NCBI RefSeq assembly: GCF_004360225.1
Contig: NZ_SNUA01000013.1
Location: forward strand, 62,001-126,000
DNA: 64,000 nt
Direction: 5' to 3'
From: Alcanivorax sp. 24
GTDB taxonomy: Bacteria; Pseudomonadota; Gammaproteobacteria; Pseudomonadales; Alcanivoracaceae
The notes under the pieces are model-generated. The model was not told the origin of the DNA. It did not search any database and was given only the letters and a program-made list of their open reading frames with translations. The translations under genes and the position numbers were made by a program. Shown in pieces: positions 37,953-58,954 of the stretch (position 1 is its first letter; every line of letters begins with the position of its first letter).

Positions 37953-39302
37953 ATGTTCGGACTTTCCCCCCTGCGTCGCGGTGGCATCGCGGCCCTGTCC
38001 CTTTCGGTCGCCGCTTCGATTGCTTCCCCGGCTTTCGCCGCCATGGGTAACACCGCCAGCAGCTATGGCCTTTTTCCTGGTGATGTGGCATCCGCTCAGG
38101 CCCTTTCCATGTTCAATCCGCAGGCGTCGGCGCTGTATTACAACCCGTCCTACCTGATCAAGGACCCCCGTGGTGAGCTGACCATCGGCTTCCTGCATGC
38201 CGAGCAGGAGCTTGATGGCAGGAGTCTGGGGGGCGCGGCACCGGCCACGCGCGACGGTAACCTGCTCGACGACAGCCGCAGCCAGCAGCAATTGATCGCG
38301 CTGAAAACCGATCTGTCCAGCATCACCAAATTCGAACATCCAATTTACTTCGCCATCATCGCCGGCGTGGAAAAATACGGGAAAGAAATGCTCTCCTTTA
38401 ATTCCACCACGTCCATGGGCGGGCAATACATGGAGTACGGTCGTCAACCGTTATTCCTGAATATCGGCGGTGGTACCGAGTTGCTGCACGGGATCGCCGT
38501 CGGCGCCTCCGCGCACGTCTCCCTGCGCTCCGACGCTAAACTGGTGGCGAGCTCCAACCTGGCCGGTGAGACCCAGTATGAAACACTCGAGGTCAACGCC
38601 AAACCGGTGATCCGCCCGGTGCTCGGTGTCACCCTGGACTGGGGCAAGCTGATCTGCGGCAAGGGGGATTGCATCACCGACGGCCTGGAAACCGCATTCG
38701 CCTTTCGCGGCCATACCGAAGCGCGCACCTCGGTGGACTCGCGCATCACCATTCCCGGCACCGTGCCGTCGCCGGGTATCGCCTTGCTGATCGATACCGT
38801 GGATTCCTATCAACCGGACATTTACAGCGCCGGGTTGCAATACCGTTTCAATGACCGGCTGCGTGCCGGGGTGACGGTGGAACGGCAGAACTGGTCGGAC
38901 CTGATGGAGGTGCTGGAGGACGACACCGTCAAGGATCAGGCGGACATCCGCTTCAAGGACATCACCGTGCCCCGGGTCGGGGTTGAGTGGAGCGCGCTCA
39001 AGAATGTAAGCCTGACCGCCGGCGTGGCGTTCCGGGAATCACCGATGGAAAGCGATCGCAGCCTGGACGTCAATTATCTGGATGCGGACAAGACCATCTA
39101 CGGCGTCGGTGGCTCCTGGACCATCGAGCAACCCCCGATCCTTGCGTATCCCATGCGAGTGGATTTCGGCTACCAGTTCCATGATATCGACGAGCGCAAG
39201 TTTGATCTGACCAGTGACCGGGCCCCGGTGAATCCCTACGAAACCATCGAAACCGGCGGTGAAGTCCATGTATTCAGTGGTTCCGTCACCCTGAAGTTCT
39301 GA
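37953..39302 (+). CDS. FadL-like outer-membrane transport protein, copy 1
   Basis: 449 residues; GGAGG precedes the ATG. A Sec signal ends near S-P-A-F-A-A. The N-terminal region of the mature protein carries A-L-Y-Y-N-P-S-Y-L, the N-P element seen at the hatch of FadL/TodX channels, and the chain ends V-F-S-G-S-V-T-L-K-F with a terminal Phe, as outer-membrane barrels do. FadL relatives pass long-chain fatty acids, alkanes or aromatics. Its stop is 11 bp before a large lipoprotein gene, and the pair is duplicated at 54392-58954, where this gene's partner carries a stop codon. It is probably the only functional porin copy in the window. Confidence 0.82.
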   Translation: MFGLSPLRRGGIAALSLSVAASIASPAFAAMGNTASSYGLFPGDVASAQALSMFNPQASALYYNPSYLIKDPRGELTIGFLHAEQELDGRSLGGAAPATRDGNLLDDSRSQQQLIALKTDLSSITKFEHPIYFAIIAGVEKYGKEMLSFNSTTSMGGQYMEYGRQPLFLNIGGGTELLHGIAVGASAHVSLRSDAKLVASSNLAGETQYETLEVNAKPVIRPVLGVTLDWGKLICGKGDCITDGLETAFAFRGHTEARTSVDSRITIPGTVPSPGIALLIDTVDSYQPDIYSAGLQYRFNDRLRAGVTVERQNWSDLMEVLEDDTVKDQADIRFKDITVPRVGVEWSALKNVSLTAGVAFRESPMESDRSLDVNYLDADKTIYGVGGSWTIEQPPILAYPMRVDFGYQFHDIDERKFDLTSDRAPVNPYETIETGGEVHVFSGSVTLKF

Positions 39303-39313
39303 GGAGTGGTGTC

Positions 39314-42300
39314 ATGCGAAGCAAACTGATCATAGCCGCCTGCGCCGGTATCCTGGCCGGTTGCGGGGGGGGCGGTAGCAGCAATCCGAGTTTCGATGGG
39401 CCCCAGTACAATCCCAAGGAACTGTATTTCAACTACCCTTTCGACGGGCAGGCCTATGTGGCGCCGTCCGCTCCGGTGGTGCTGGAGTTCAGTGATCCCC
39501 TGGAGGTGACCGAGGACAACTTCCGTTTCACTGGTCCTGGTGGCGCGCCGGTGCCTTTCGATATGAAGGTGATGAACGATGGCCGTAACGTGGTGTTGCA
39601 ACCGACCACGCCGCTGGCGCCGATCAGCGACTACAAGGTCGCCATCATTGACCTGGCTCCGGACGGCCGGGTGGTCAATTTCCGTGACGGGGAACTGAAC
39701 TTTTCCACCCGTCCCGCTCTGGAAGGGCCGCTGTCGTGGCAGCGTGCTTCCGACACCTTTGAGGTCACTGAGATTTTCCCGGACGATGAGCAGTTTCCCA
39801 CCGTGGATTTCTCCACTTTCCGGCTGCGTATCTCCCAGCCGCTGGACTCATCTTCCGTGGTTTACGGGGATACCGTCAGCCTGAAACAGGGGGATGAGTT
39901 GGTGCCGGCGCTGGTGTTGAGCGGTCGCGATACGCTCACCGTGGATCCGCTGGAAGACATGACCCCGGGGCAGCAGTATGTGCTGACGGTGACCGGGCTC
40001 ACCAGCGTTGCCGGGGAAACACTGGCGCCGTTCGAGCGCACCGTGACACCGCTGAACACCAAGTCCAGCACCGGTGAACGGGAAGTGCTGGTGACCGAGG
40101 CGCCGGCCACCGACGACACCCTCGGCTGTCTTGATGACGGTGACCTGCGAACTTCGGAACTGACTGGTGATCCGATCAACTGCGTGCCGTTGATCAGCAC
40201 CCTGCTGGCCAATGGCACCGCTTCCAAACAGTCTGGTGATATCTACGCCGAACTGGCGTTCCCGCCCAACTTCCCGGATGTGACGCCGCTGCGTATCAAG
40301 CGTGGTGGGATTCTGGTGGGCGAACCGCTGGATGTGTTGATCGGCGGGGAAGTGCCGGTGGGCTTCGACTCCGGCGCGGTGACCATCCAGGTGATGTCGG
40401 ACGCCACCGGTTACCTGTTTCCCAATCCCAACTCCGATTCCCCCGATGCCGCCAAGAACGTGCGTCTGTTCATGGATCTCGCCGCCAACACCAAGGATGC
40501 CCGGGCCAACGGCGCCTTCACGCAGAACCTGATGCACGTGGAACTGGTCGGCAAGGCGATCGTCGAGGACGGCAAACTGGTCACCGACGCGCTCACCGTG
40601 GTGGAGCCCCGGGTGCTGGGCGTGGAAAACAGCCACGGTGTATTGAGCTTCCATATGGAGTCCTACCGCGACCAGGAGAACGCGCCGCCGCAACCGGCGG
40701 ATACCGTGCCGCCGACCTTGCTGGTGATGGACGACAATGGCGAGCAGCGGCTGTCCTGGACGCCGGGAGACGTGGCCGATCGTGCCGTGCCCGGTGAACC
40801 GATCACCCTGCTGTTCAGCGAGGCGCTGGATCCACTCAGCGTGCGACCGGGCGAGACCGTCCAACTGACCAAGGGCGGCACCGCGGAGCCGTTCTCCTGG
40901 AGCCTGGACGGTAACGCTTTGGTAATACAGCCGGAATCGCCACTGGCCTTCGGCGTGCCCTATGAAGTCAGCGCCACCAACGGCCTGACCGATCTGGCCG
41001 GCAACGGGTTGCAGGTGCTGGATCCACTGACCGGCCTCAACACCATTGGCTTCACCATGCCGGAATACGTGGTGGCACGGGACGGCGAGGATGTGCGCCG
41101 CGCGCCGTTTGCCATGGTGGTCTACCCGGGTTTCCCCTGCGCCAGCAGCGCCGCCACGGCGTCCGACATCGCCGCCGGCGTGCAGGGCGTGTGTGTCTCT
41201 TCGAGCTCTGAATCCGAGCAGGTGGAAGTGGATGAACTGCCGATCGTCGGCATGCCGGCGAACCGGCCGATCCGGGTGCGCTTCTCCCAGAACATGGAGG
41301 CCGGCAGCTTGACCCTGGGAACCGCCTGCGGTCAGGGCGCGTTCCGTGTCGAGCGGGTAAGCGAGGACGGTACCTGCCAGGGCGTGGTGGACGGCGATTT
41401 GAGACCGGAAACCCGGGCTCTGACTTTTACACCGGAGCAACCCTGGGAAGAGGGTGCTTTGTATCGCTATACCCTGGCTTCGCAAAGCGATGGCTGCGGC
41501 GGTGACGTCATATGTTCCACCGATGGGTTACCGCTGCAGACCGCCTTGCTGGAAGGCAGTGATGCCAAATCCGGCGGTCCCAACATGGACGTCCTGTTCC
41601 GGGGGGCCGGTGCCGTGACCACGGTGTTCCAGGAATTGAGCAACCTGCCGAGCGTCGATGCCAACAGTAACTTTGTCGTCGACGAAGGCGAGCCGAGGGT
41701 GCCGGCGGGTACCCCGGATCCGGCGACGCCGGCCAACGCCACGCTGATCCGTCCCAACGGTGATGGCGGTGGCGGCCTGGTCAGCACCGCCAACACCGGT
41801 TGCGGATTCGAGGGTACGCCACCCTATACCGAGGACGATCAGATCGATTGTGACAGTGAGCGGATTCTGTATCTCACCGGTGATCTGAATACGGAAATTC
41901 TCGATTACGATGGCGAGGCGGGCGGTGTCCCGGTGGTGATTTATCCGACCACCGTGGCGCTGAGCAACCTGGATGCCACGGCGGTGATCGGTCTGGATCT
42001 GGACACCTCCGACGGTGACAACTCGCTGAGTGATCTGCCGATTGTCGGCGGTCTGCTGGGCGGCCTGGTGCAGACTCTGGGGGATGTTCTTGGCATCCTG
42101 GGGCTGGAGGAAGCCGTGCTCGGCCAGGTGGGTAACCTGGGGCTGGTGCCGATCGAGACCCACACCGGGCCGAACATCATGCGGGTGCGTTATGACGAGG
42201 ACGGTGATGGCAATCGCACCATGCCGCCAGTGGGGCGCATCATCGCAACCCCGGACGGGCCGGTGTTCCGGATCACTTTTGATCTGCTGTTCGACGCGCC

Positions 42301-42541
42301 GGAGCTGAGTCTGCCGCTGGGGCTGCAGCACAACGTGAAAAGCCTGCCGATCGATAACGTGCAACTGGAAGGTCCCGTGGACTTCCTGCCCGATGGCCGC
42401 TTGTTCATCGGACTGGAAAATCTGGAACCGCTGAATGTGGATCTGGAAATCACCCTGGCCGGCTTGCCCGGTGGCCAGGTGAATCTGACCATTCCCACCA
42501 GCGGCATTAACCTGAGTTACCAGAGCGGCTCGATCAAATAG
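39314..42541 (+). CDS. Large Ig-like domain lipoprotein, copy 1
   Basis: 1075 residues with a lipobox I-L-A-G-C (Cys17) and a glycine-rich linker. Repeated SbsA-type Ig-like (Big_5) domains are recognisable near residues 34-135, 155-245, 485-580 and 650-740, with phrases such as P-V-V-L-E-F-S-D-P-L, L-T-V-D-P-L and Q-P-W-E-E-G-A-L-Y-R-Y-T-L. Cysteines occur in pairs shared with copy 2, suggesting disulfides. D-A-N-S-N-F-V-V-D-E could be a Ca2+-binding loop. There is no lipase G-x-S-x-G, unlike VolA, a FadL-linked surface lipoprotein of Vibrio. It is probably anchored in the outer membrane and works with the FadL-like channel 11 bp upstream. A hairpin terminator follows. Confidence 0.75.
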   Translation: MRSKLIIAACAGILAGCGGGGSSNPSFDGPQYNPKELYFNYPFDGQAYVAPSAPVVLEFSDPLEVTEDNFRFTGPGGAPVPFDMKVMNDGRNVVLQPTTPLAPISDYKVAIIDLAPDGRVVNFRDGELNFSTRPALEGPLSWQRASDTFEVTEIFPDDEQFPTVDFSTFRLRISQPLDSSSVVYGDTVSLKQGDELVPALVLSGRDTLTVDPLEDMTPGQQYVLTVTGLTSVAGETLAPFERTVTPLNTKSSTGEREVLVTEAPATDDTLGCLDDGDLRTSELTGDPINCVPLISTLLANGTASKQSGDIYAELAFPPNFPDVTPLRIKRGGILVGEPLDVLIGGEVPVGFDSGAVTIQVMSDATGYLFPNPNSDSPDAAKNVRLFMDLAANTKDARANGAFTQNLMHVELVGKAIVEDGKLVTDALTVVEPRVLGVENSHGVLSFHMESYRDQENAPPQPADTVPPTLLVMDDNGEQRLSWTPGDVADRAVPGEPITLLFSEALDPLSVRPGETVQLTKGGTAEPFSWSLDGNALVIQPESPLAFGVPYEVSATNGLTDLAGNGLQVLDPLTGLNTIGFTMPEYVVARDGEDVRRAPFAMVVYPGFPCASSAATASDIAAGVQGVCVSSSSESEQVEVDELPIVGMPANRPIRVRFSQNMEAGSLTLGTACGQGAFRVERVSEDGTCQGVVDGDLRPETRALTFTPEQPWEEGALYRYTLASQSDGCGGDVICSTDGLPLQTALLEGSDAKSGGPNMDVLFRGAGAVTTVFQELSNLPSVDANSNFVVDEGEPRVPAGTPDPATPANATLIRPNGDGGGGLVSTANTGCGFEGTPPYTEDDQIDCDSERILYLTGDLNTEILDYDGEAGGVPVVIYPTTVALSNLDATAVIGLDLDTSDGDNSLSDLPIVGGLLGGLVQTLGDVLGILGLEEAVLGQVGNLGLVPIETHTGPNIMRVRYDEDGDGNRTMPPVGRIIATPDGPVFRITFDLLFDAPELSLPLGLQHNVKSLPIDNVQLEGPVDFLPDGRLFIGLENLEPLNVDLEITLAGLPGGQVNLTIPTSGINLSYQSGSIK

Positions 42542-42557
42542 GTCAGTGAAGACGAGA

Positions 42558-42584
42558 AGGTTCGCGGCGCAAGGCCGCGAACCT
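42558..42584 (+). terminator. Rho-independent terminator after lipoprotein copy 1
   Basis: Perfect 11-bp stem AGGTTCGCGGC / GCCGCGAACCT with loop GCAAG, followed by CTTTGCC. Confidence 0.8.
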
Positions 42585-42672
42585 CTTTGCCGGTGGACGA
42601 CTTCCCTGCTCAAACCGTAAACTAGCTGCTTTCCGCCGGTCCGGCGGTCTCGCGCTGATTTTCGGAACCCCC

Positions 42673-44190
42673 ATGCTTGAAAAGTACGTCAAACGGATCC
42701 TGCAATCCCGCGTCTATGACGTGGCCCATGAGACCCCCATCCACGCCGCGCCGCTGATTTCCCGGCGAATTGGCAACCGGGTGCTGCTCAAGCGCGAGGA
42801 TCTGCAGCCGGTGTTCTCCTTCAAGCTGCGCGGCGCCTACAACAAAGTGGCCCAGCTTTCCGAGGCCCAGCGCGAACGCGGCGTGATCTGCGCATCCGCC
42901 GGCAACCACGCTCAGGGGTTGGCGCTGGCGGCCACCTCCATGAATGTGCGCTCGGTGATCGTGATGCCGCGCACCACGCCGGATATCAAGGTTAAATCCG
43001 TACGTCAGCTTGGCGGCAAGGCGGTGCTGGTGGGCGACAGCTTCGATGAGGCGCTGGCCCATGCCCGCAAGCTGGAAGAAAAGGAAGGCCTGACGTTCGT
43101 CCACCCCTACGATGATCCTGACGTGATCGCCGGGCAGGGCACCGTGGGCATGGAGATCCTGCGCCAGCAAAGCCGCGATCTGGATGCCGTCTTCATCCCG
43201 GTGGGTGGCGGTGGACTGGCCGCGGGGGTCGCCGCCTACGTTAAGTACGTGCGCCCGGATGTGAAGATCATTGCCGTGGAGCCGGAAGACGCCGCTTGCC
43301 TGAAAGCCGCCCTGGAGCGTAAACGCCGGGTAACGCTGCCTGAAGTGGGGTTGTTCGCCGATGGCGTGGCGGTGAAGCAGATCGGCAAGGAAACCTTCCG
43401 GGTGCTGAAGGACACGGTGGATGAGGTGATCACCGCCACCACCGACGAGATCTGCGCGGCCATCAAGGACACCTTCGAGGACACCCGCACCGTCTGCGAG
43501 CCCGCCGGAGCTCTGGCCCTGGCCGGCCTGAAAAAATGGGTGGCGCGCACCAAGTCGGAGAACAAGACGCTGGTGGCGATCCAGAGTGGTGCCAATGTCA
43601 ATTTTGATCGTCTGCGGCATATTTCCGAGCGGGCGGAACTGGGCGAGCAGCGCGAGGCGATTCTGGCGGTAACCATCCCCGAGAAGCCGGGCGCCTACCG
43701 TAATTTTCTGCAGGTGGTGGGGCGCCGCGCCATCACCGAGTTCAATTATCGGTACGCCGGGGAACACGAAGCGAATATTTTTGTCGGTATTCAGACCAGC
43801 TCTGGTGGCGCGGATCTTGCTCCGTTACTGGAAGAGCTGCGGGCTGCCGGTTATCCGGTGGTGGACATGACTGGCAACGAGATGGCCAAGCTGCACATTC
43901 GCCATATGGTGGGTGGGCACACCTCGCGCCAGGACCTGGACGAAATGCTGTTCCGGGTGGAATTTCCCGAGCGCCCCGGGGCGCTGCTGAAGTTCCTCAT
44001 GTCGCTGGGCCACAAGTGGAATATCAGCCTGTTCCACTATAGAAACCACGGCGCCGCCTATGGACGGGTGCTGGTGGGCTTCCAGGTGCCCTTCGGAGAA
44101 AGGGGCAACCTGCGCAAGGACCTCAAGAAAGTCCCCTATCCGATGGTGGAAGAGAGTGACAATCCAGCGTACCGGCTGTTTTTGAACTAG
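42673..44190 (+). CDS. ilvA: Threonine ammonia-lyase (threonine deaminase), biosynthetic
   Basis: 505 residues. The PLP lysine lies in F-S-F-K-L-R-G-A-Y-N-K, the glycine loop in S-A-G-N-H-A-Q-G, and V-G-G-G-G-L-A-A-G in the second lobe. From about residue 330 there are two ACT-like regulatory domains (ILAVTIPEKPGAYRNF and MLFRVEFPERPGALLKF), the long IlvA form under isoleucine feedback. It converts threonine to 2-oxobutanoate for isoleucine synthesis. Confidence 0.96.
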   Translation: MLEKYVKRILQSRVYDVAHETPIHAAPLISRRIGNRVLLKREDLQPVFSFKLRGAYNKVAQLSEAQRERGVICASAGNHAQGLALAATSMNVRSVIVMPRTTPDIKVKSVRQLGGKAVLVGDSFDEALAHARKLEEKEGLTFVHPYDDPDVIAGQGTVGMEILRQQSRDLDAVFIPVGGGGLAAGVAAYVKYVRPDVKIIAVEPEDAACLKAALERKRRVTLPEVGLFADGVAVKQIGKETFRVLKDTVDEVITATTDEICAAIKDTFEDTRTVCEPAGALALAGLKKWVARTKSENKTLVAIQSGANVNFDRLRHISERAELGEQREAILAVTIPEKPGAYRNFLQVVGRRAITEFNYRYAGEHEANIFVGIQTSSGGADLAPLLEELRAAGYPVVDMTGNEMAKLHIRHMVGGHTSRQDLDEMLFRVEFPERPGALLKFLMSLGHKWNISLFHYRNHGAAYGRVLVGFQVPFGERGNLRKDLKKVPYPMVEESDNPAYRLFLN

Positions 44191-44422
44191 GACGTGAGCG
44201 ATCACACACCTCGTAAACCACGGATCACGCCAGGTGAAAGTTGAGCGGTACTTTTGTTAAGAAAGGTGAGCATGTTGATGTAACCGCTTGACTTTTAAGA
44301 GGCAAGTGATCATTTTTCGATCCAGTTCTCGTTTTGTTACATAAAATTTGCATTAGTATTCCATGCTTCGGCATGGACAGCCTTTTGAGAGTGATGACTT
44401 TTTCTTGGGGATTGAAGACACA

Positions 44423-44575
44423 ATGAAGAAAAGACCAGATGCACTGGTTGTCCTGGCGATCATTTTTGCCACCGGCGTTTTGGTGAGCACCCTCACCCAC
44501 GGTGGCAATCAGCCGGATCTGGAGCGCTATGCCCAGTCCGCCGGCGTCAGTATCAAGGCCGATCAGTCACGCTAA
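44423..44575 (+). CDS. Small single-span membrane protein, unknown function
   Basis: 50 residues: M-K-K-R-P-D, one hydrophobic helix (ALVVLAIIFATGVLVSTL, about 7-24), then a short polar tail rich in charged residues. The upstream 230 bp are unusually A/T-rich for this genome (for example 44281-44360), consistent with a dedicated promoter. No strong Shine-Dalgarno sequence is seen. It ends one base before the fau stop on the opposite strand. Composition and codon use look coding, but the family is not recognised. Confidence 0.55.
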   Translation: MKKRPDALVVLAIIFATGVLVSTLTHGGNQPDLERYAQSAGVSIKADQSR

Positions 44576-45160
44576 TCAGTTGCGAGAATCCGTTATAATA
44601 AGGTCCAGCGGCTGATCCCAGGGGGCTTCCGGCACCCTGGACAGCCGTTGACACTCAAAAGCGACGCCCACCAGCCGGGGGCGGCGTGGTCGTCGCGCGA
44701 AATTCGCCAAAGTCCGATCGTAAAAGCCGCCGCCCATGCCCAGGCGATGGCCTCGATCATCGAATCCCACCAGTGGAATCAACAGAACATCCAGCGCCCA
44801 GTCCGCCCGTGCTCGCTCCGCGCATCGTGGCTCTCCGATGCCAAAACGATTGGCGCGCAGTCTTTTCTCCCGGCGCCAGAGATGAAAACGCAGACGGCCG
44901 CGGTAAACCGGGTCCAGCACCGGCAGATACAGACGGGTGCCCTGAAAGCGGCGCTGAGCCAGCCCCGGTAGCGGCGACAATTCGCCGTCGGCGGCATGAT
45001 AGACCGCCACATGGCGAGCCCGCCGCGGTCCCAGTTCCCGCCGCAAATTACGCGCGAACCGCCTCTCCGCCAGACGCCGCTCACCCGCACCCAAAGCCCG
45101 CCGCCGCGCCCGTAACTCACGGCGCAACTGCTTGCGATCGGTTAACTTGGGTTGATTCAT
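44576..45160 (-). CDS. fau: 5-formyltetrahydrofolate cyclo-ligase
   Basis: 194 residues starting MNQPKLTDRKQLRRELRARR; a GTG 14 codons upstream was not preferred. The 5-FTHF cyclo-ligase signature D-D-R-G-H-R-L-G-M-G-G-G-F-Y-D-R is present, and L-L-I-P-L-V-G-F precedes it. It converts 5-formyl-THF to methenyl-THF with ATP. The chain is very arginine-rich. It sits directly downstream of 6S RNA, as in E. coli (ssrS-ygfA), where the two are co-transcribed. Confidence 0.92.
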   Translation of the reverse strand: MNQPKLTDRKQLRRELRARRRALGAGERRLAERRFARNLRRELGPRRARHVAVYHAADGELSPLPGLAQRRFQGTRLYLPVLDPVYRGRLRFHLWRREKRLRANRFGIGEPRCAERARADWALDVLLIPLVGFDDRGHRLGMGGGFYDRTLANFARRPRRPRLVGVAFECQRLSRVPEAPWDQPLDLIITDSRN

Positions 45161-45263
45161 GCGAAGGAGGATTTTAAGAAGGGAGAACGACCCGAATAGC
45201 ACAGCGCTTTCTTACAAGCACCCAGCTGTCCACTGTCAACTATCAACTGTCCACTGTAATAAA

Positions 45264-45454
45264 GCGTGCCCCCCGGGCCGCCGCTGCGGGTGTGGCCCTT
45301 GAACCGTCAGGTTCAAGGCGGGAACCGCGGACCGGACCATCAGGCTTTCCGCTCGGTGGCGGACATGCGCACAGGCCGGCCAATATTGGTTCCCTTTTGG
45401 TACAACATCGGCTCAGGGACATAACCCGGCTGGCGAACGGACCAGGGGACACTT
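45264..45454 (-). ncRNA. ssrS: 6S RNA
   Basis: Read on the minus strand, this stretch has the conserved 6S elements in order: GTGTCCCCTGG pairing with CCGGGGGGCAC as the closing stem; CCCTGAGCCGAT (minus strand of 45407-45418); and the near-palindromic CCTTGAACC...GGTTCAAGG (45297-45318). Both internal elements match E. coli 6S RNA. Length of about 190 nt and location between zapA and fau agree with the family. 6S RNA binds sigma-70 RNA polymerase as a promoter mimic in stationary phase. The ends are estimates: a TATACT -10 box (minus strand, 45461-45466) places the 5-prime end near 45454. Confidence 0.92.
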
Positions 45455-45460
45455 GAGCGT

Positions 45461-45466
45461 AGTATA
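45461..45466 (-). promoter_or_regulatory. -10 box of the 6S RNA gene
   Basis: TATACT on the minus strand, about seven bases before the predicted 6S 5-prime end. The -35 region overlaps the end of zapA and is weak (CTGACC). Confidence 0.6.
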
Positions 45467-45485
45467 TCAGGGCGGGGGCAGCCGG

Positions 45486-45815
45486 TCAGGGCTTGACAGA
45501 AAAGCGGTTCTGGGGGGCGAGCTCCTCGAGCGCACGCAGCTCTCCCTCCAGCCGATCGATCAGCGCCTGCATACGGGCACTGCCGGTCTCATCGGAAGAG
45601 GCCTTGGAGCGGGCTTCCAGCAACTCGTGGCTGATATTCAAGGCCGCCATGATGGCGATGCGTTCCAGACCAATCACATTGGCCTGCTTCACTTCACGCA
45701 TTTGAGTGTCGAGATAGCGGGCGGCGCGCAGCAGATTGTCCTGCTCGCCAACCGGGCAGGCCACGCGGTATTCCTTGCCCAGCAAGTGAATCACCAGCGA
45801 ACTGCTATCGTTCAT
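45486..45815 (-). CDS. zapA: Cell division protein ZapA
   Basis: 109 residues: an N-terminal beta-rich part (LVIHLLGKEYRVACP), then R-A-A-R-Y-L-D and the long C-terminal helix, as in ZapA. It cross-links FtsZ protofilaments at midcell. It overlaps the upstream coiled-coil gene by four bases, and 6S RNA and fau follow, reproducing the zapA-ssrS-fau block of gammaproteobacteria. Confidence 0.93.
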   Translation of the reverse strand: MNDSSSLVIHLLGKEYRVACPVGEQDNLLRAARYLDTQMREVKQANVIGLERIAIMAALNISHELLEARSKASSDETGSARMQALIDRLEGELRALEELAPQNRFSVKP

Positions 45816-46027
45816 GAGTCCTCCTGCTCCAGGGATTGCAGGCGCGTTATGATCGCCTCCACCCGGGAGCGGGCCAAGTCGTTTTTACGGATGAGCTGGG
45901 CCCGTTCATCGAGAAGACGGTGTTCCCGCTCGCGCAGCAGGCGATTCTCTTCGCGCAAACGGTTGGACTGACGCAGCAGGGAGTCCACGTGGGCTTCCAG
46001 TTGCCGCAGTTGTTGTTCCGTCGTCAT
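45812..46027 (-). CDS. TIGR02449-type small coiled-coil protein (ZapB-like)
   Basis: 71 residues that are nearly all heptad coiled coil (LRQLEAHVDSLLRQSNRLRE, then ENRLLREREHRLLDERAQ). It resembles ZapB in length and character and matches the TIGR02449 proteins found before zapA in pseudomonads. The ATGA overlap with zapA predicts coupled synthesis and a role at the division ring. Confidence 0.85.
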   Translation of the reverse strand: MTTEQQLRQLEAHVDSLLRQSNRLREENRLLREREHRLLDERAQLIRKNDLARSRVEAIITRLQSLEQEDS

Positions 46028-50623: not shown

Positions 50624-50660
50624 TAATCGCGAATCATTTTCGTTTATGGAGCCATGCCCC

Positions 50661-51671
50661 ATGACTGTCCTGCGCCGTTTGGCCCTGCCTGCGCTCGCCC
50701 TTCTTGTCGCCGCCTGTTCCGAGCAACCCGAGCCTAAAGACGAGGTGGTGGTTTACACCTCCCGTAATGACGAGCTGATCAAGCCGGTCTTCGACGCTTA
50801 CACCGAGCAAACCGGTGTTTCCATTCGTTATATCACCGACAACGCCGGTGCCCTGGCCGCCCGCCTCAAAGCCGAAGGCGAGCAGTCCCCGGCGGATCTG
50901 CTGGTCACCGTGGATGCCGGCAACCTGTGGCAGGCCACCCAGGAGGATCTGCTGCAACCGGTGGAGTCCACCGTGCTGGAAGGCAATGTGCCGGAGCATC
51001 TGCGTGACGAGCAGGGCCGCTGGTTCGGTCTGACTCAACGCGCCCGCACCATTGTCTACTCCACCGAGCGGGTGCAACCGTCGGAACTGTCCAGCTATGA
51101 AGCGCTGGCCGATGAACAATGGAAAGGCCGTTTGTGTCTGCGCACTTCCAAGAAGGTCTACAACCAATCCCTGGTCGCCACCATGATCGAGCGGCTCGGC
51201 GAAGAAGAAGCGGAGCGCGTGGTGCGCGGCTGGGTCGATAATCTGGCCACCGATGTGTTCGCCAACGACAACGCGGTGATGGAAGCCATAGTCGCCGGCC
51301 AGTGCGACGTCGGCATCGTCAACACCTACTACTTCGGCCGTCTGCAACGCGACAATCCCCAACTGCCTCTGAAGTTGTTCTGGGCCAACCAGGACAGCAG
51401 CGGCACCCATGTGAACATTTCCGGTGGCGGTGTCACCAAGAACGCGCCCAACCGGGAAGCCGCCGTGGCGTTGCTGGAGTGGATGAGCAAGCCGGAAGCC
51501 CAGAAGCTGCTCGCCGACGGCAACCTGGAGTACCCGGCCAGCTCCGGCGTCGAACCGGCGGAGCAGGTCAAGGCCTGGGGAGACTTCAAAGCCGACGACC
51601 TCAACGTCAGCGTGGCGGGCAGCCGTCAGGTGGAAGCCGTGAAGCTGATGGACCGTGCGGGTTACCGCTGA
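50661..51671 (+). CDS. Iron(III) ABC transporter substrate-binding lipoprotein
   Basis: 336 residues; the start after GGAG was preferred over one five codons upstream. The signal ends in a lipobox L-V-A-A-C (Cys19), so the receptor is membrane-tethered. It belongs to the FbpA/FutA branch: V-V-V-Y-T-S-R-N-D at the mature N-terminus, and the twin tyrosines of V-N-T-Y-Y-F-G-R-L that coordinate Fe3+. It delivers ferric iron to the permease encoded next, with which it overlaps by 17 bases. Pseudomonas has the same pair between ubiI and the gcv genes. Confidence 0.9.
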
Positions 51672-53247
51672 TCGCCGGGTCGATCGCTATCTGATCATCG
51701 CCGGGGTCCTGGCCCTGGCGGTGCTGTTACCGGTTTCCGTGCTGTTGTCCGCCTGGCGCGGCGACGAGTCGGAAACTTGGCGCCATCTGGTGGATACCGT
51801 GCTCTGGCGTTTGCTGGGGCATACCGCTTTGCTGGTGATCGGCGTGGGTCTCGGGGTGCTGCTGCTGGGCGTCAGTCTGGCCTGGCTGGTGGCCACCCAG
51901 GATTTTCCCGGCCGCCGCGTGCTGGACTGGGCTCTGCTGTTACCGCTGGCCATGCCGGCCTATGTGCTGGCCTTCGTCGTGGTGCAGGGGCTGGACTATT
52001 CCGGTCCGGTGCAATCGGCGTTGCGTCAGTGGTGGCCGGGGTTTTCCGGCTTCAGCGCGCGCCATCCGTTCTGGGTGATCGTCACCCTGTCCCTGGTGTT
52101 CTACCCCTATGTCTACATGCTGGCGCGGCTGGCGTTCCTGACCCAGGGCCGGGCCGTGATGGAACAGGCCCGGCTGCTTGGCCGCGGCCCCTGGGCGGCG
52201 TTCGCCCAGGTGGCGTTGCCGATGGCGCGCCCGGCCATCGCCGCGGGTCTGGCGCTGGCGTTGATGGAAACGCTGGCGGACTTCGGCGCCGTTTCCGTCT
52301 TCAATTTCGACACCTTTACCACCGCCATCTATAAGAGCTGGTATGGCCTGTTCAAACTGGCCGCCGCCGCGCAACTGGCCTCGTTGTTGTTGCTGTTCGT
52401 CTTGTTGGCGCTATGGCTGGAACGGCGTGGCCGGGGGCGCGCCCGCTACGGAGAGCGCGGTGGCCGCCCGATGGCGGCGGCGCGCTCACGGTGGGCCTGG
52501 CTGATGACCGGCTACGCCGGGCTGGTGGTGACGCTGGCCTTCCTGTTGCCGGCGGGACGCTTGCTGTACTGGGCCCTGGACGAAGTGGCTCGCGGCCTGG
52601 ACGCGCGATTCGTGTCCATGGCGCTGCGCACTCTGACATTGGGTATCAGTGCCGGTGTGCTGGTGGTGGGGCTGGCGTCGGTGCTGGCCTGGCTGCAGCG
52701 TCTGCGGCCGCACCGGTTGATGCGCGTGTTGGTACGCACGGCGACGATGGGATATGCGTTGCCCGGTTCGGTGCTGGCGGTGGGGATCGTCATCGGCTTC
52801 GCCGCCATCGACCGCCAATTGGGGCACTGGTTTGGCTGGAAGCAACTGTTGGTGGGCAGTCTCGGGGCGCTGTTCCTGGCCTATGTGATCCGTTTCATGG
52901 CGGTGGCTTTCGGCCCGGTGGAAAGCGCCTTGGAGCGGGTTCGTCCGGCTCTGCTGGAGGCGGCCCGCACGCTCGGCGCTCCGCCGCTGGAAGCGGCGAG
53001 GCGGGTGCTATTGCCGATGGTGGCGCCGGGGCTGGTCACGGCGTTGTTGCTGGTGGGCATCGATATCATGAAGGAAATGCCGGCCACGCTGTTGCTGCGT
53101 CCCTTTGGCTGGGACACCCTGGCCGTGCGCATCTATGAACTCACCGCGGAAGGGGAGTGGCAACGTGCCGCTCTGCCATCCCTCGCCCTGGTGGCGGTGG
53201 GTTTGCTACCCGTCTACCTGCTGGTCCGCCGCCTGCGTCATTTCTGA
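51655..53247 (+). CDS. Iron(III) ABC transporter permease (fused FbpB-type)
   Basis: 530 residues and about 12 helices; two fused permease halves, each with an EAA loop ([20 protein letters not shown] and [21 protein letters not shown]). The GTG start lies inside the binding-protein gene, so the two are translationally coupled. No ATPase gene follows; instead the repeat array starts about 40 bases after the stop. An ATP-binding subunit must be encoded elsewhere. Confidence 0.92.
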
Positions 53248-53284
53248 GGGCGAGAGCCCTGGGCAGCAATCCACGAATTGCCAT

Positions 53285-53970
53285 GAAGCCGCTGCAGGGA
53301 GCTTGCTTGCAAGCGAATGTGCCAATGCCGAAGGCCGGTAATTCGCCAGCAAGCTGGGTCCCACAGTTTTGCTACGAAGCCGCTGTGAGAGCTTGCCTGG
53401 AAGCGAATGTGCCTACGCTGGGGGCTGGTAATTCGCCAGCAAGCTAGCTCCCACAGTTTTCGCTACGGAGCCGGTGTGAGAGCTTGCCTGGAAGCGAATG
53501 CGCCTACGCTGGGGGCCGGTAATTCGCCAACAAGTTGGCTCCCACAATTTCTGCTACGGAGCCGCTGTGAGAGCTTGCTTGGAAGCGAATGTGCCTACGC
53601 TGGGGGCCGGTAATTCGCCAACAAGTTGGCTCCCACAGTTTCTGCTACGGAGCCGCTGTGAGAGCTTGCTTGCAAGCGAATGTGCCTACGCTGGGGGCCG
53701 GTAATTCGCCAGCAAGCTGGCTCCCACAGTTTTGCTACGAAGCCGCTGTGAGAGCTTGCTTGCAAGCGAATATGGCAATGCCGGAGGCCGGTAATTCGCC
53801 AGCAAGCTGGCTCCCACAGTTTTTGCTACGGAGCCGCTGTGGGAAGCTTGCCTGCAAGCGAATGTGCCTACGCTGGGGGCTGGTAATTCGCCAGCAAGCT
53901 GGCTCCCACAGTTTTGCTACGAAGCCGCTGTGGGAGGCTTGCTTGCAAGCGAATATGCTAGTGCCGGGGA
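53285..53970. repeat. Eight-unit tandem array of a 91-bp REP-type unit
   Basis: Units start at 53285, 53376, 53467, 53558, 53649, 53739, 53830 and 53921, so the period is 91 bp with one 90-bp step. Each unit runs (G/A)AGCCGCTGTG, an AGCTTGC(T/C)TG hairpin arm, GCGAATGTGCC, then GGTAATTCGCCAGCAAGCTG and CTCCCACAG. Inner units differ at few positions. The arms match the dispersed REP elements of the window, so this is an amplified REP/BIME-like cluster. Frames that stay open through it are artefacts of the period. Confidence 0.92.
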
Positions 53971-53975
53971 TGCGT

Positions 53976-54391
53976 CCGCGTTGCAGATACCATGGCGCCT
54001 CTTCCCGTACTGCCAGTAACCCTTATGTAACTTCCGGTAACGGATTTGCGCAAAATGTATAACTAAAATCGGGATCACTTCAGTGAACAAATGATAACTA
54101 TTTGAGTTTTCATATAAAAATAATGAGTAGCAATCGCATCACTTTTCCCGAAAATTTCCGAAATTTTGCCACTTTTTCTAATTATAAATAACCATATGGC
54201 CCTATATGACCGGATCCAAAGTAGTAAATTCAAGGATCAGTTAACAAATGAAAACTAAAGGTCGCTCAGAGCGTCTCCCTCTCGTTATCCTGTAGACGAT
54301 ACTTGGCAGATTGTTACCCCCTCCAGGTATCCCTTTACCTCGAATAACAAGCGTCTTGCCGTTTCCCGAACGGCTGTATGGAGATGTACCC
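53976..54391. other. A/T-rich control region before the second porin/lipoprotein module
   Basis: From about 54030 to 54260 the sequence is far more A/T-rich than its surroundings (21 of 60 bases G or C at 54121-54180). It holds A/T tracts such as CATATAAAAATAATGAG and AATTATAAATAACCATATGG. No gene is credible in it. It probably contains the promoter of the module, and possibly sites for a nucleoid protein such as H-NS/MvaT-type silencers; no specific operator was identified. Confidence 0.5.
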
Positions 54392-55750
54392 ATGAAAAAG
54401 AACAAGGTGCTTCAGGGAGCTGCCCTGGTGGCTTCCATGGGCATGCTCGGTGGTCAGGCCATGGCGAGCATGGGCAACATCGGAACGACCTATGGCGTGC
54501 TGCCGTCCGACATCGCTTCCGCTCAAGGGCTTTCCCTGTTCAATACCCAGGTTTCCGCCGTCTACTACAACCCGGCTTACCTCGCCAAGGACCCCCGTGG
54601 TGAATTGACCTTCGGCTTGCTGCACGCGGAGCATGAGCTGCGCGCCAACAGCCTGGGTGGCGCCGCGCCGCCAATCCGCAACGGCGACGTGTTGCAGGAC
54701 TCCCCGTCTCAGCACGTTCTGGTGGGGATGAAAACCGATCTGAGTTCCATGACCCGTTTCAAACATCCGATCTACATGGGTGTGATGCTGGGTGTGGAGA
54801 AATACGGCGAGGAGATGATGGCGTTCGAGTCCGCCACCTCCAACGAGGGGCAGTACTTCGAATATGGCCGCTAGCCGTTGTTCCTGGTACTCGGTGGCGC
54901 CACGCAGATCTGGCGTGGCCTGGACGCCGGCGCCTCCGCCCGGTTGACCCTGCATTCCGATGCGGAACTGCGCGCCACCACCACCCTGGGTGGCGAGACC
55001 AGCTATGAATCCCTGAACGTTTCCGCCAAACCCTCGATCCGCCCGATTCTCAGCATGAACATGGACTGGGGGGAGAGCTTCTGCCCCGATGGCGAGTGCT
55101 GGTACAACGGCCTGGAAACCGCGTTGTCCTATCGCGGCTACTCCAATACCAAGACCACCGTTGATGCCAACACGGTGATTCCCGGCACCATCGGCGAACC
55201 CGGCCTGTCCCTGGCGGTGACTACTCTGGATTCCTATCAGCCGGATATCTTCGCTCTGGGCATGCTTTACGGTAAGGAGCGCTTCCGCGTCGCCGTTGGC
55301 GTGGAGCTGCAGCGCTGGTCCGACCTGGAAGAGGAATTCGAAGGCGACACCATCAAGGATCAGGCCGTGGAAGACGGTATTGGTGTGCTCGAATTCAAGG
55401 ACATCGTGATTCCGCGCGTCGGCGCCGAGTTCAAGCTATCGCCGAACTACACCGTCACCGGTGGGGTGGCCTACAGCAAATCGCCGCTGGACTCCGACGC
55501 CTCGCTGGACGTGAACTACCTGGATGCGGACAAGCTGATCGTCGGTCTCGGGCTCACCGCTCAATTCGATGATCCCCACTTCTTTGCCTTCCCGGTGCGC
55601 TTCGACTTGGCCTACCAGTATCAGAAGCTGCGGCCGCGGGACTTCGACTTGTACGCCACCAATTCGCCCAGTTACCCGCAATCCTACGAGCGGGTGGAAG
55701 CGGAAGGCGACGTTCACGTCTTCGCCGGTTCGGTAACCCTGAAGTTCTAA
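54392..55750 (+). pseudogene. FadL-like outer-membrane protein, copy 2, interrupted by an amber codon
   Basis: The reading frame is continuous over 453 codons except for TAG at codon 161 (54872-54874). Copy 1 has Gln165 (CAA) at the matching place (Y-G-R-Q-P-L-F-L), so a single C-to-T change in CAG explains it. Signal peptide, V-Y-Y-N-P-A-Y-L and the C-terminal V-F-A-G-S-V-T-L-K-F are all intact and no frameshift is seen, so the lesion looks recent. The truncated product (160 residues) could not form a barrel. The lipoprotein partner follows after 12 bp and remains open. Amber suppression, a sequencing error or strain-specific loss are alternatives. Confidence 0.85.
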
Positions 55751-55762
55751 CGGAGGCCTCCC

Positions 55763-58700
55763 ATGAACATGCGTATCGTATTGGCGCTGTGCGGCGCCGC
55801 GTTATTGAGCGCCTGTGGCGGCGGTGGCGGCAGCAGTCAGTCCGTGGACTTCAGTCCCTGGGAACAGATCACGCTGTATTACAGCTACCCCTATAACGCC
55901 CAGACCGGTGTGTCCCCGAACGCGCCGCTGGTACTGGCGTTTTCCGACGCCGTGCCGCAATTGAACGCGGACCAGTTCTCCCTGCGGGGCCCGGATGGCG
56001 CCGTCGAGCTGACGCTGGAACAGGTCAACGGCGACAAGAGCGTGGTGCTGACGCCGGCCGTGCCGCTGGCGGTGAACAGCGAATACACCCTGACCCTGAA
56101 CGGGATCGGCGAGGAGGGCGATAAGGCCCTGCTGCCCGGCGGCCAACTGGTCTTCATCACCCGACCGGCTTTGGAAGGGGCAAAGGAAGAGCGCAGTAGC
56201 GCGGCGGCTTTCCAGATGGAACGCATCATCCCCAATGGTGACGATCTGCCGTTCCTGGATTTCTCCTCGGTGCAACTGACCCTGTCCCAGCCCATCGACC
56301 CCACCACGGTGAAGTACGGGGAGACCGTGCGTCTGACCCAGGGTGGCGAACTGATACCGGCCACGGTGTTGACCAGTGGCCGCTTCCTGACCGTGGACCC
56401 CGCCGACAGCGAGGACGCCGACGGCAACCCGGTGGACGCCCTGAAAGCCGGTGAGAAAGTCACCCTGGAAGTGACCAGCGACGTGAAAAGTCTGTTCGGT
56501 GAATCGCTGACCGCCATCAATCGCAGCTTCACCCCGCTGGACACCAAGCCCCGCTCGGTGATGGTGCAGGAAGCCGCTCAGGCGGGCGATCCCGCGGCCG
56601 GCTGTCTGGCGGACGGCACCACCCGATCGCCGCTCAACAATGAGAGCATCAACTGCGTGCCGGTGAAGTCGAACCTGCTGGGTGACACCACCGTCTCCAT
56701 GCTCTCCGGCGATGTTTTCGCCGAACTGGCGTTCGCCCCCAACTTCCCCGATACCACACCACTGCGCCTGCCGCGTGGCTCGCTGCTGAACGGTGAGCCT
56801 TTGGACGTGCTGATCGGCGGCCAGGTGCCGGCCGGTTTCGATTCCGGTGACGTCACCGTGACCATCCTTTCGGATGCCAATGGGTACTTGATGAACGCCC
56901 CTTACAGCACGGACCCCAATGCGCCCCGGCGCCTGGTGCTGACCATGGACGTGGCGTTCGATACCGCCGACTCCCGCGCCAACGGCGCCTTCAACCAGGA
57001 CCTGATGCAAGTGGAACTGGTGGGCACCGCCATCGTCGAGGGCGACCGCCTGGTGGTCGATGCCATCGGCGTGGTGGAGCCGCGCGTGCTGGGTGTGGAA
57101 AACGCCTACGGCGTGCTCAGCTTCCACATGGAGTCCTACTCCGACCAGACCATCCCGCGCGAACCGGCGCCGGATGTGGACGGACCGGTACTGAGCTCCT
57201 GGGTCCCCGGCGATCACGTCGATAAACACCGCCCCGGCGACCCGGTGATCCTGACGTTTGATCATCCGCTGGATCCACAATCCGTTGAGAAAGACGTGAG
57301 CTTGCAATTGATCGGTGCGAATACGCCGGTGGAATTCGATTACGTGGTGGACGGCTCCTCCATCGTGATCCGTCCGAAAATACCGCTGCGGCACAACACC
57401 GATTACCAAGTGCTGTTCGACGATCGTCTCACTGACGTGGCGGGCAACCCGGCGCAGCCGCAAACCCTGGATTTCCGGCTGCCGGAATACGTTGAGGGCG
57501 AGCAACAGTCTCCGGTGGTGCTCACCGCCTACCCGGGCTTCCCCTGCGTTACCGTTGACCGCAATCTGGCTGCCAACGATGCGGGCCGTTGTGCGGGTGG
57601 CCAGGACGGCAGCGGTGGAAAGGATAAACCCGAAGACGACCACCTGCCGGTATTGCCCTTGGCCGCCAACCGCCCCATCGCGGTGACCTTCTCCCAGGAA
57701 ATGAATGAACAGTCCATTCGCGACCATTTCGTTGTGGAAAGCGTGGATGATGCCGGCAATGCCTTGGACGAAGTCACGGGTAAGCTGACCTACATGGGCC
57801 GCAAGATCGTTTTCGAACCCGACCAGCCCTGGGAAGAGGGCGTGCTGTATCGATATACGCTGCCCTCCCAGGAAGGCAGCGTGGACGCCGCCAGTTGCGC
57901 GACGAACGGAATTTGTGACGTTCGTGGCCTGCCGCTGCAAACCCAATTGCTGGCGCAAAGCGCGGACGACGCCCCGGCGGCCACCGACGGCGGCCCAAGC
58001 CTGGAAATCTTCTTCCGTGGCGCGCCCAACACCACCGCGACCCTGCAGCCGCTGCGCAACCTGCCGACTTCGGATGTGAACGCGAACTTTGTTTGGGACA
58101 AAGGTGGCGACAATAGTCCAGGTGAGGTTCCGCCTTCACAGAGTGGAGAGGCGTTGCGTAACAGCGCGAATCTTGTGCCAGACGATCCCTCCGCGGAAGG
58201 GGAAATGATTGAGAGCGCCAACGTAGGGTGCGCGGTTGGAGAGGTGTGTCCGGACAATCAATTCCTTTATTTGTCGGGCAATCTGGATGTGGAAATCGTG
58301 GGTTATATGTCGGGGCCGGAAGTGAATGAAACTTATCCGCCACCTCAGCCCGTGGGCGATGAGGAAGAGGGTGAGAAAGATCCGATTCCGGAGGAGGTGC
58401 GTACAAATGGTGGTGTATTGGTTTACATCAATCCCACCATGCTGATTACTTCTGGTACCACTGTGGAAGTGGAAACCGAAGGGTTGGGAGATTTGACCAA
58501 CGTGCCTCCGGTCCCTACTGGCCCCCAATTAATGCGCATCCGCTACACCTGCGATGCTGCTACGAGTGAGGGCTGTGTGGCCCCGGATTACGGTCGCGTC
58601 AAAGGCTGGATTGTGCCGGGTGAAAGTAACCCTCGTTTTGTCACTGACCTCAGCTTGTATCTGGATGCGCCGCAATTACAACCCATCGTGGAAATACTGG

Positions 58701-58954
58701 GCACCCATAAACTTGGGCATAACCTGCACAGTAAGGCGTTAGAGTTGAAGCTGGAGGGAGATGTGACTTTCCTGGACGACGGAAGACTCCAAATCGAGCA
58801 GATCAGCCAAAATTCTCTGGATCTGGACGTGCAGCTCGATGGCAGAGTTTCGGTTCTGGGAATCATTAATATCGATGTGGAAGACCAAATCTTTCTGACT
58901 ATCCCAGAGGGCGACACCTTCCTGAACTACCTCAGCGAACCCATCAAGCAATAA
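55763..58954 (+). CDS. Large Ig-like domain lipoprotein, copy 2
   Basis: 1063 residues with lipobox L-L-S-A-C (Cys18) and a Gly/Ser linker. It is colinear with copy 1 over most of its length (for example E-L-A-F-A-P-N-F-P-D-T-T-P-L-R, V-L-I-G-G-Q-V-P-A-G-F-D-S-G, Y-P-G-F-P-C and Q-P-W-E-E-G-V-L-Y-R-Y-T-L), with Ig-like Big_5 domains and conserved cysteine pairs. From about 58080 the coding sequence turns markedly less GC-rich, and similarity to copy 1 falls until a short related C-terminus. The last 290 residues may therefore have come by recombination. It is probably an outer-membrane lipoprotein cooperating with a FadL-type channel; its own channel gene is interrupted. Confidence 0.75.
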   Translation: MNMRIVLALCGAALLSACGGGGGSSQSVDFSPWEQITLYYSYPYNAQTGVSPNAPLVLAFSDAVPQLNADQFSLRGPDGAVELTLEQVNGDKSVVLTPAVPLAVNSEYTLTLNGIGEEGDKALLPGGQLVFITRPALEGAKEERSSAAAFQMERIIPNGDDLPFLDFSSVQLTLSQPIDPTTVKYGETVRLTQGGELIPATVLTSGRFLTVDPADSEDADGNPVDALKAGEKVTLEVTSDVKSLFGESLTAINRSFTPLDTKPRSVMVQEAAQAGDPAAGCLADGTTRSPLNNESINCVPVKSNLLGDTTVSMLSGDVFAELAFAPNFPDTTPLRLPRGSLLNGEPLDVLIGGQVPAGFDSGDVTVTILSDANGYLMNAPYSTDPNAPRRLVLTMDVAFDTADSRANGAFNQDLMQVELVGTAIVEGDRLVVDAIGVVEPRVLGVENAYGVLSFHMESYSDQTIPREPAPDVDGPVLSSWVPGDHVDKHRPGDPVILTFDHPLDPQSVEKDVSLQLIGANTPVEFDYVVDGSSIVIRPKIPLRHNTDYQVLFDDRLTDVAGNPAQPQTLDFRLPEYVEGEQQSPVVLTAYPGFPCVTVDRNLAANDAGRCAGGQDGSGGKDKPEDDHLPVLPLAANRPIAVTFSQEMNEQSIRDHFVVESVDDAGNALDEVTGKLTYMGRKIVFEPDQPWEEGVLYRYTLPSQEGSVDAASCATNGICDVRGLPLQTQLLAQSADDAPAATDGGPSLEIFFRGAPNTTATLQPLRNLPTSDVNANFVWDKGGDNSPGEVPPSQSGEALRNSANLVPDDPSAEGEMIESANVGCAVGEVCPDNQFLYLSGNLDVEIVGYMSGPEVNETYPPPQPVGDEEEGEKDPIPEEVRTNGGVLVYINPTMLITSGTTVEVETEGLGDLTNVPPVPTGPQLMRIRYTCDAATSEGCVAPDYGRVKGWIVPGESNPRFVTDLSLYLDAPQLQPIVEILGTHKLGHNLHSKALELKLEGDVTFLDDGRLQIEQISQNSLDLDVQLDGRVSVLGIINIDVEDQIFLTIPEGDTFLNYLSEPIKQ

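What the first reader, a model, noticed from the sequence alone, without database searches (positions are those of the whole stretch)
37953..58954. Duplicated module of a FadL-like channel plus a giant Ig-like lipoprotein at two separate sites
The pairs 37953-42541 and 54392-58954 have the same order, spacing (11-12 bp) and lengths (449/453 codons and 1075/1063 residues). Each encodes a FadL-type barrel and a roughly 1070-residue outer-membrane lipoprotein with Big_5 domains and conserved cysteine pairs. The lipoproteins lack the lipase motif of VolA, the known FadL-linked lipoprotein. From memory of Pseudomonas gene order, rpiA is next to ilvA and the iron ABC pair is next to the gcv genes; here each module interrupts one of those junctions. 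This suggests a two-part hydrophobic-substrate capture system acquired or copied into conserved blocks, with no described name that I know.
Basis: partly seen in the sequence, partly recalled or inferred. Interest (0 to 1): 0.72.

Follow-up and report, generated by a model that had tools for sequence, protein, structure and literature searches.

The report
Alkane-uptake gene pairs with swappable tips
The two gene pairs are relatives of a known bacterial oil-uptake system (aupAB), but comparing related genomes shows that one of its two proteins has a C-terminal half that, in some copies, is swapped between lineages like an exchangeable tip.

Summary
The pair is not unnamed: the barrels are relatives of AupA and the pairs match the aupAB alkane-uptake operon of Marinobacter (mBio 2018), known as multi-copy in Alcanivorax. 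The genome is Alloalcanivorax-like and holds five aupB. New here: AupA orthologues (copies 1-3) are 96-99% identical between close species while AupB diverges faster. In copies 3-5 (outside the window) the first ~470 residues stay 96-99% identical but the rest falls to 45-59%, with a sharp DNA break in copy 3 and a ~16-point GC drop in that class; tips are shared across different stems. A gene for a small secreted protein, distantly related to PraA/PraB alkane-oxidation activators, lies beside this class (15 of 16 loci against 0 of 15 others). The window's copies belong to the stable class; only aupB2's tail varies. A second genus shows tip replacement without the Pra-like gene; other genera show none. 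Best reading: AupA channel plus outer-membrane, probably surface-facing AupB. The Pra-like protein as AupB's carrier is a bold, untested extension.

The parts
37953..39302 (+). aupA1: FadL-type outer-membrane channel, intact, 449 aa
   Evidence: NF041571 AupA E 1e-154, 515 bits, below NCBI cut-off 840; PF03349; orthologues 98% identical, dN/dS 0.03-0.05
39314..42541 (+). aupB1: 1075-aa Ig-like lipoprotein, stable-tip class
   Evidence: lipobox LAGC, Big_5 x4; orthologues 94% identical to it, 40-residue blocks 82-100%; GC 62/63 stem/tip
54392..55750 (+). aupA2: FadL-type channel interrupted by one in-frame stop
   Evidence: TAG inside; both halves match NF041571 and are 98-99% identical to intact copies in two relatives
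54872..54874 (+). in-frame TAG in aupA2, seen only in this genome among the three compared
   Evidence: natural mutation and assembly error not distinguished
55763..58954 (+). aupB2: 1063-aa Ig-like lipoprotein
   Evidence: lipobox LSAC, Big_5 x4; orthologues 85-87% identical; AlphaFold2 mean pLDDT 85.2, pTM 0.85, nearly all beta
58163..58882 (+). variable tail of aupB2 (about residues 801-1040)
   Evidence: 25-75% identity per 40-residue block against two relatives, where most earlier blocks are above 85%; GC after codon 600 is 56 against 65 for the stem
36905..37558 (+). rpiA, flank of module 1
   Evidence: PF06026
42673..44190 (+). ilvA, flank of module 1
   Evidence: PF00291 + PF00585
50646..53247 (+). 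ABC binding protein and permease, flank of module 2
   Evidence: SBP_bac_6 and BPD_transp_1
59213..60307 (+). gcvT, flank of module 2
   Evidence: PF01571

Best explanation
The window holds two of at least five aupAB-family loci of an Alloalcanivorax-like oil degrader. AupA is a FadL-type outer-membrane channel that lets hydrocarbon enter sideways into the membrane. AupB is a lipoprotein made of a chain of Ig-like domains, anchored in the outer membrane, whose conserved N-terminal half (stem) works with AupA and whose C-terminal half (tip) most likely faces outward and contacts something external: hydrocarbon, surfactant micelles or a carrier protein. Recombination swaps the tip in the fast copies while AupA and the stem stay nearly fixed. 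Shown here: gene pairs, homology, stem/tip contrast, sharp DNA break in copy 3 and GC breaks in its class, tips shared across stems, the linked Pra-like gene, the stop in aupA2. Shown by others in Marinobacter: AupA and AupB bind each other and are needed for uptake of micellar hexadecane. Inferred: function in this species, surface exposure, and what the tip touches.
For: AupA and FadL family matches (PDB profile hits 3dwo, TodX, FadL). Operon layout, 11-12 nt gap, multi-copy habit as in PMC5989066. Among three species AupA1-3 are 95.7-98.7% identical, AupB1 93.6-96.7%, AupB2 84.8-87.7%, AupB3-5 67.3-73.5%. Own copies 3-5 against the two relatives: residues before ~470 96-98%, the rest 46-59%. 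G010/G004 stem 100, middle 46, tip 39, DNA 92-100% then 46-60%. Class 3-5: 21 pairs with stem >=90 have tip median 43 (37-99), best tip match in the same stem cluster 7 of 22; class 1-2: 50 pairs, median 98, 29 of 31 (28 of those 50 pairs come from one near-identical group, without it 22 pairs, 74-99, median about 88, counted). GC stem/tip 65.2/49.4 in 28 class 3-5 genes, 65.5/63.6 in 38 class 1-2 genes. Second genus: 3 of 3 species pairs with AupA >=93% have AupB tips of 49-55%, and two of them regain DNA identity soon after the aupB stop.
Against: The 2018 paper found most AupB with the inner-membrane marker. Two of 20 homologues in other genera have Asp after the lipobox Cys, an inner-membrane sorting signal in E. 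coli (recalled rule). The barrels score below NCBI's AupA cut-off. Surface exposure is inferred from variability only. The window's own copies are the stable ones. In the second genus one pair (G495/G543) diverges over nearly the whole mature AupB, not only the tip. In further genera, 4 of 4 pairs with AupA >=96% have tips 96-100% identical. One class 3-5 pair (G002/A. xenomutans) shares its tip at 99%.
Confidence: 0.62

Rival explanations
1. AupB is a periplasmic or inner-membrane shuttle that moves alkanes from the outer to the inner membrane, as proposed in the 2018 paper; the variable half is a lipid-handling domain tuned to different hydrocarbons.
For: [quoted passage not shown] the authors propose this transfer role.
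Against: An internal shuttle is not expected to lose half of its identity between species whose AupA is 96-98% identical, nor to carry tips of foreign GC. Lipobox followed by Gly in the window copies fits outer-membrane sorting (recalled rule).
Confidence: 0.2
2. The tip is an outward target of phages, predators or toxins, and swaps because escape is selected; alkane capture is not what drives the diversity. This concerns the driver and is compatible with the anatomy of the best explanation.
For: Mosaic, sharply bounded variation beside a fixed partner is usual for surface antigens (established knowledge); it also occurs where no Pra-like gene was found nearby.
Against: No link to phages or predators was looked for; a Pra-like gene beside 15 of 16 fast loci is not explained by it.
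Confidence: 0.3
3. A new unnamed FadL plus lipoprotein capture system inserted into conserved gene blocks.
For: Gene order, size and absence of a lipase motif are as described.
Against: The family is described and named.
Confidence: 0.04
4. A FadL-VolA type system in which the lipoprotein is a lipase that feeds fatty acids to the channel.
For: Same kind of pair; weak TIGR03502 score of 10.5 bits for aupB2.
Against: No GxSxG; cut-off 383.9 far from met; the aupB2 model is nearly all beta, and no hydrolase is among the 50 Foldseek rows shown of 1217.
Confidence: 0.02

Closest known systems
AupA-AupB alkane uptake operon, Marinobacter hydrocarbonoclasticus SP17 (PMC5989066; read: abstract, the sections on the operon, localisation and distribution, part 1 of 2 of the discussion, and passages)
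   Same: FadL-like gene followed after about 11 nt by a large aupB gene; multi-copy in Alcanivorax; 20 of 20 fetched aupA loci of other families have a homologous aupB next to them
   Different: Below the NCBI AupA cut-off here; AupB is a lipobox protein, in some copies with an exchangeable C-terminal half ('lipoprotein' occurs 0 times in the paper's main text); five aupB; one aupA with a stop
PraA/PraB alkane-oxidation activators of Pseudomonas (NCBIfam NF041561/NF041562; PMC5410065, passages only)
   Same: Small secreted proteins beside the fast aupAB loci are distant relatives (hhalign 97.3%, E 2.1e-11); PraB-type genes stand directly beside a FadL-like gene in two family-f3 genomes, in one also near an AlkB-like gene (AlkB recognised by eye, no NCBIfam hit)
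   Different: Below PraB cut-off (best 40.6 bits of 120; that model finds none in G000); mostly convergent to aupB, and in copy 3 inside the exchanged segment
VolA-FadL pair of Vibrio cholerae (recalled; search listings only)
   Same: FadL-type channel paired with a large lipoprotein
   Different: No lipase motif or fold
Pyoverdine and its receptor FpvA (recalled; search listing only)
   Same: Analogy only: a secreted scavenger and a surface receptor that diversify together
   Different: No homology; here the scavenger would be a protein

Membership tests
FadL outer-membrane channels | Pfam PF03349 above gathering score | tested here: met
   50 bits (copy 1), 36.6 bits (second half of copy 2), cut-off 29.7; PDB profile hits to FadL/TodX
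AupA equivalog (NF041571) | score above NCBI cut-off of 840 bits | tested here: not met
   515 and 615 bits; so called an AupA-family relative, not the NCBI equivalog
aupAB operon family | aupA-like gene followed by aupB-like gene, same strand, short gap | tested here: met
   gaps 11 and 12 nt; aupB beside over-cut-off AupA is 34-38% identical to its best genus homologue
aupAB operon family | needed for growth on, or binding of, micellar alkanes | not testable with these tools
   shown for strain SP17 (PMC5989066)
aupAB operon family | AupB mainly in the inner membrane | not testable with these tools
   reported for SP17; sequence here suggests the outer membrane
VolA/Pla-1 lipases (TIGR03502) | family score and lipase motif | tested here: not met
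   10.5 of 383.9 bits for aupB2, no listed match for aupB1; no GxSxG
PraB (NF041562), for the neighbour proteins of copies 3-5 | score above 120 bits | tested here: not met
   best 40.6 bits, in genome G012; distant homology only

The most novel reading that the evidence does not exclude
AupB is a cell-surface receptor with a swappable tip, and the Pra-like protein encoded tail-to-tail with it is its own secreted hydrocarbon carrier or emulsifier. One recombination cassette (tip + mature Pra-like part, bounded by the conserved stem and the conserved signal peptide) exchanges the receptor and its carrier together, so each lineage keeps its secreted oil-solubiliser private, as siderophores and their receptors do.
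Probability: 0.2. Interest if true: 0.85.

Novelty: new variant of a known kind. Interest (0 to 1): 0.6.

Why it matters
How water-insoluble alkanes get from oil through the outer membrane is an open step in oil biodegradation, and AupB's role and place are unclear. A partner whose C-terminal half is swapped between species while the channel stays fixed suggests that AupB meets something variable outside the cell, which can be tested directly. If the linked Pra-like protein is its carrier, this would be a protein-based, kin-specific scavenging system for oil.

Tried and rejected
VolA-type lipase: no motif, no family score, all-beta model. Silent spare tips: a tip profile found no match outside the five aupB genes in G000, nor outside the aupB loci already known in G002. 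NCBIfam and Pfam scans of the three neighbour proteins of this genome gave nothing meaningful (best E 0.093); the Pra link came by profile. In one search, run at E up to 1, 3 of 14 control genomes also gave a match, none over the cut-off. Plasmid search: no hit for the neighbour protein; one Marinobacter adhaerens plasmid with an aupAB pair. Fold search of aupB2 gave Ig-domain chains (S-layer proteins, LdtMt2), query TM at most 0.12 in the 50 rows shown, so no global match. The tip-Pra link (partial r 0.55 given stem, permutation p 0.0002, 25 pairs) is no proof of function: the two tails are physical neighbours, so linkage alone would give it. Rows dropped: L104 and L109 (broken aupB frames) left out of the 67-sequence set; L132 (cut off) also left out. 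Downstream stretches of 14 further fast loci: 11 had a Pra-like gene, 3 not; of these 3, one stretch was short, one belongs to the broken aupB of L109, and one (G002 copy 3) ended inside the gene, which was found later and is nearly identical to that of A. xenomutans; it is not among the 25 pairs. The stem/tip border in the second genus was first set by an automatic motif match (residue 607 of G467's frame); other borders (520, 600) give the same picture. Literature: the listings showed no paper on AupB tip variation or on Pra-like genes beside aupAB; apart from the papers cited I saw titles and abstract starts only. AupA was not folded (second structure job unused).

Full report
What is there. 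Two gene pairs lie at 37953-42541 and 54392-58954, same strand, 11 and 12 nt between the genes. The barrel of pair 2 has an in-frame TAG at 54872-54874; intact copies exist in Alloalcanivorax balearicus and A. xenomutans. The rest of aupA2 is as well conserved as the intact channels (aa identity 98%, dN/dS 0.04-0.06), so the stop is recent or an assembly error; this was not resolved. The lipoproteins are 39% identical to each other, carry lipoboxes and four Big_5 stretches each, and three cysteine pairs (595/610, 712/718, 823/829 in aupB2) that are invariant or nearly so in 42 homologues.

Name. NCBIfam AupA, NF041571, covers barrel 1 and both halves of barrel 2, below its cut-off of 840 bits (515 and 615 bits). 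The paper behind that name (PMC5989066) describes an operon with an 11-nt gap, growth and micellar-uptake defects of mutants, AupA-AupB co-immunoprecipitation and up to six copies in Alcanivorax. A search with an AupB alignment found 36 loci; 32 bear the names Alcanivorax or Alloalcanivorax, two are Alcanivoracaceae, one Salinisphaera, one a Desulfobacteraceae MAG. In a class-wide sample of 369 genomes no match outside the window's own genome exceeds 36.2 bits; in an order-wide sample 35 of 293 genomes have E <= 1e-30 and 9 pass the cut-off. Those 9 lie in one unnamed genus, presumably Marinobacter. So the pair is an aupAB-family operon.

Copy number. The genome (G000, 4.76 Mb, 99 contigs) has five aupB genes, one further intact aupA, and aupA pieces at contig ends; two contig ends are identical over their last 127 bases, which hold an aupA end. 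Homologues of aupB occur in 13 of 13 genomes of the genus. In the genus loci an aupA match is directly upstream of aupB in 47 of 61; 14 have none, one of these a broken frame; 3 further loci were too short to tell. Of the 24 places outside the own family, 20 were fetched and 20 of 20 have aupB next to aupA.

Fixed channel, moving lipoprotein. Between this genome, A. balearicus and A. xenomutans, AupA orthologues (copies 1-3) are 95.7-98.7% identical; AupB1 93.6-96.7, AupB2 84.8-87.7, AupB3-5 67.3-73.5. AupA of copies 4 and 5 is cut by contig ends here and was not compared. The true genes flanking the modules (picked from the ORF list by eye) are about 88-99% identical. In copies 3-5 the loss is confined to the later part: up to residue ~470 the three species share 96-99%, after it 45-59%; block by block the fall comes near residue 480-520 in copy 3, 600 in copy 4 and 560 in copy 5. 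At DNA level the own and A. balearicus copy-3 loci are 86-100% alike through aupA and the stem, fall between about codons 490 and 540 to about 45-60%, stay low past the aupB stop, and return to 76-99% from the signal-peptide part of the neighbouring secreted-protein gene on. G010 and G004 are 92-100% alike up to the stem end, then 46-60% to the end of the stretch.

Foreign tips, reshuffled. In 28 class 3-5 genes GC falls from a mean of 65.2% in the stem to 49.4% in the tip (drop 3.9 to 22.3 points); in 38 class 1-2 genes the means are 65.5 and 63.6. Among class 3-5, 21 pairs with stem >=90% have tip median 43% (range 37-99), and the best tip match lies in the same stem cluster in 7 of 22. Among class 1-2, 50 pairs have median 98% (74-100), and 29 of 31. 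Of those 50 pairs 28 come from one group of eight near-identical genes; the other 22 range from 74 to 99 with median about 88 (counted from the list). Some tips are more alike than their stems: stem 45 / tip 70, 55 / 69, 51 / 61. Window copy 1 is stable; window copy 2 is intermediate, with a variable tail at about residues 801-1040.

Other genera. In the over-cut-off genus, three pairs have AupA of 93-98% and AupB stem/tip of 83/55 (G467/G436), 64/49 (G495/G543) and 84/49 (G582/G622). In G495/G543 nearly the whole mature AupB is replaced. DNA identity returns to 91-98% (G495/G543) or 80-92% (G582/G622) after the aupB stop; for G467/G436 there was no downstream sequence. No Pra-like gene was found in the up to ~1.9 kb downstream available at these loci (one had almost none), so tip replacement does not need it. 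In further genera 4 of 4 pairs with AupA >=96% have tips 96-100% identical, so it is not universal.

The linked secreted protein. Beside class 3-5 aupB lies a gene for a 130-290-aa secreted-type protein, mostly convergent (same strand in L045 and L054); in the copy-3 locus its signal peptide is conserved between species while the mature part is not. It was found at 15 of 16 class 3-5 loci and 0 of 15 other loci with at least 1.5 kb downstream, and not in the window. A profile of the family finds relatives in 8 of 244 genomes of the order: five of the own genus, one of the own family (four others of that family none), and two of another family. Those two have NCBIfam PraB proteins (173.6 and 204 bits, cut-off 120), one with a PraA (240.7, cut-off 150) beside it; each PraB gene stands beside a FadL-like gene, and one locus also has an AlkB-like gene (AlkB recognised by eye, no NCBIfam hit). 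Profile comparison gives 97.3%, E 2.1e-11. The PraB model itself finds members in G002 and A. xenomutans (E 2.5e-9 and 4.4e-10) but none in G000. P. aeruginosa pra is described as an emulsifier that improves growth on hexadecane (PMC5410065, passages). Tip similarity goes with similarity of the mature Pra-like part (r 0.57; partial 0.55 given stem; p 0.0002; 25 pairs) more than stem does (r 0.25). Physical linkage alone can give this.

Structure. AlphaFold2 of aupB2 gives mean pLDDT 85.2, pTM 0.85, nearly all beta strand. Foldseek's best rows are Ig-domain chains (S-layer proteins, LdtMt2) with low whole-chain TM. The model does not say on which side of the membrane the tip is.

Mechanism. AupA as channel and AupB as its capture partner follow from homology and the SP17 genetics. 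Outward-facing tips are inferred from the variation and from lipobox plus Gly, which fits outer-membrane sorting (recalled rule); the published inner-membrane fractionation speaks against it. A lipobox pattern was found in 54 of 65 genus sequences that were not cut at the start (3 misses read LFGC, 8 were untrimmed upstream reads) and 18 of 20 others, two with Asp after the Cys.

Novelty. The pairs are known in kind. I found no paper, in the searches, on exchangeable AupB tips or on Pra-like genes beside aupAB.

Noticed in passing
window 53299-53954: Tandem array of a 91-bp unit, 7.2 copies, between the ABC permease gene and aupA2; relatives align to it with several overlapping hits, units not counted.
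   Followed up: partly
window 45266-45451 (-): 6S RNA (SsrS), 103 bits.
   Followed up: no
L101, L107, L113, L122, L128, L138, L144, L150: An aupAB class 97-99.98% identical in DNA over about 5.5 kb in eight genomes of the genus, far more alike than other copies; recent spread or strong constraint.
   Followed up: partly
L116, L131, L148: aupB without a detectable aupA, behind a same-looking other gene; in L131 that gene is lipase-like (Lipase_2, alpha/beta hydrolase).
   Followed up: partly
L117, L127, L143 (also L106, L112): aupB1-type genes without a detectable aupA, after an rpiA-like gene read by eye in L117, L127 and L143; in L106 and L112 only the ilvA-like neighbour was read.
   Followed up: no
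L104 (G002): aupB copy-4 relative whose frame breaks near codon 472-490, close to the stem/tip border.
   Followed up: no
L201, L209: Three to four Pra-like genes in a row beside aupB.
   Followed up: no
L027: aupAB pair on a contig filed under a Desulfobacteraceae MAG; possibly misbinned.
   Followed up: no
L197, NC_017507.1 70839-75369: aupAB-like pair on plasmid pHP-187 of Marinobacter adhaerens HP15.
   Followed up: no
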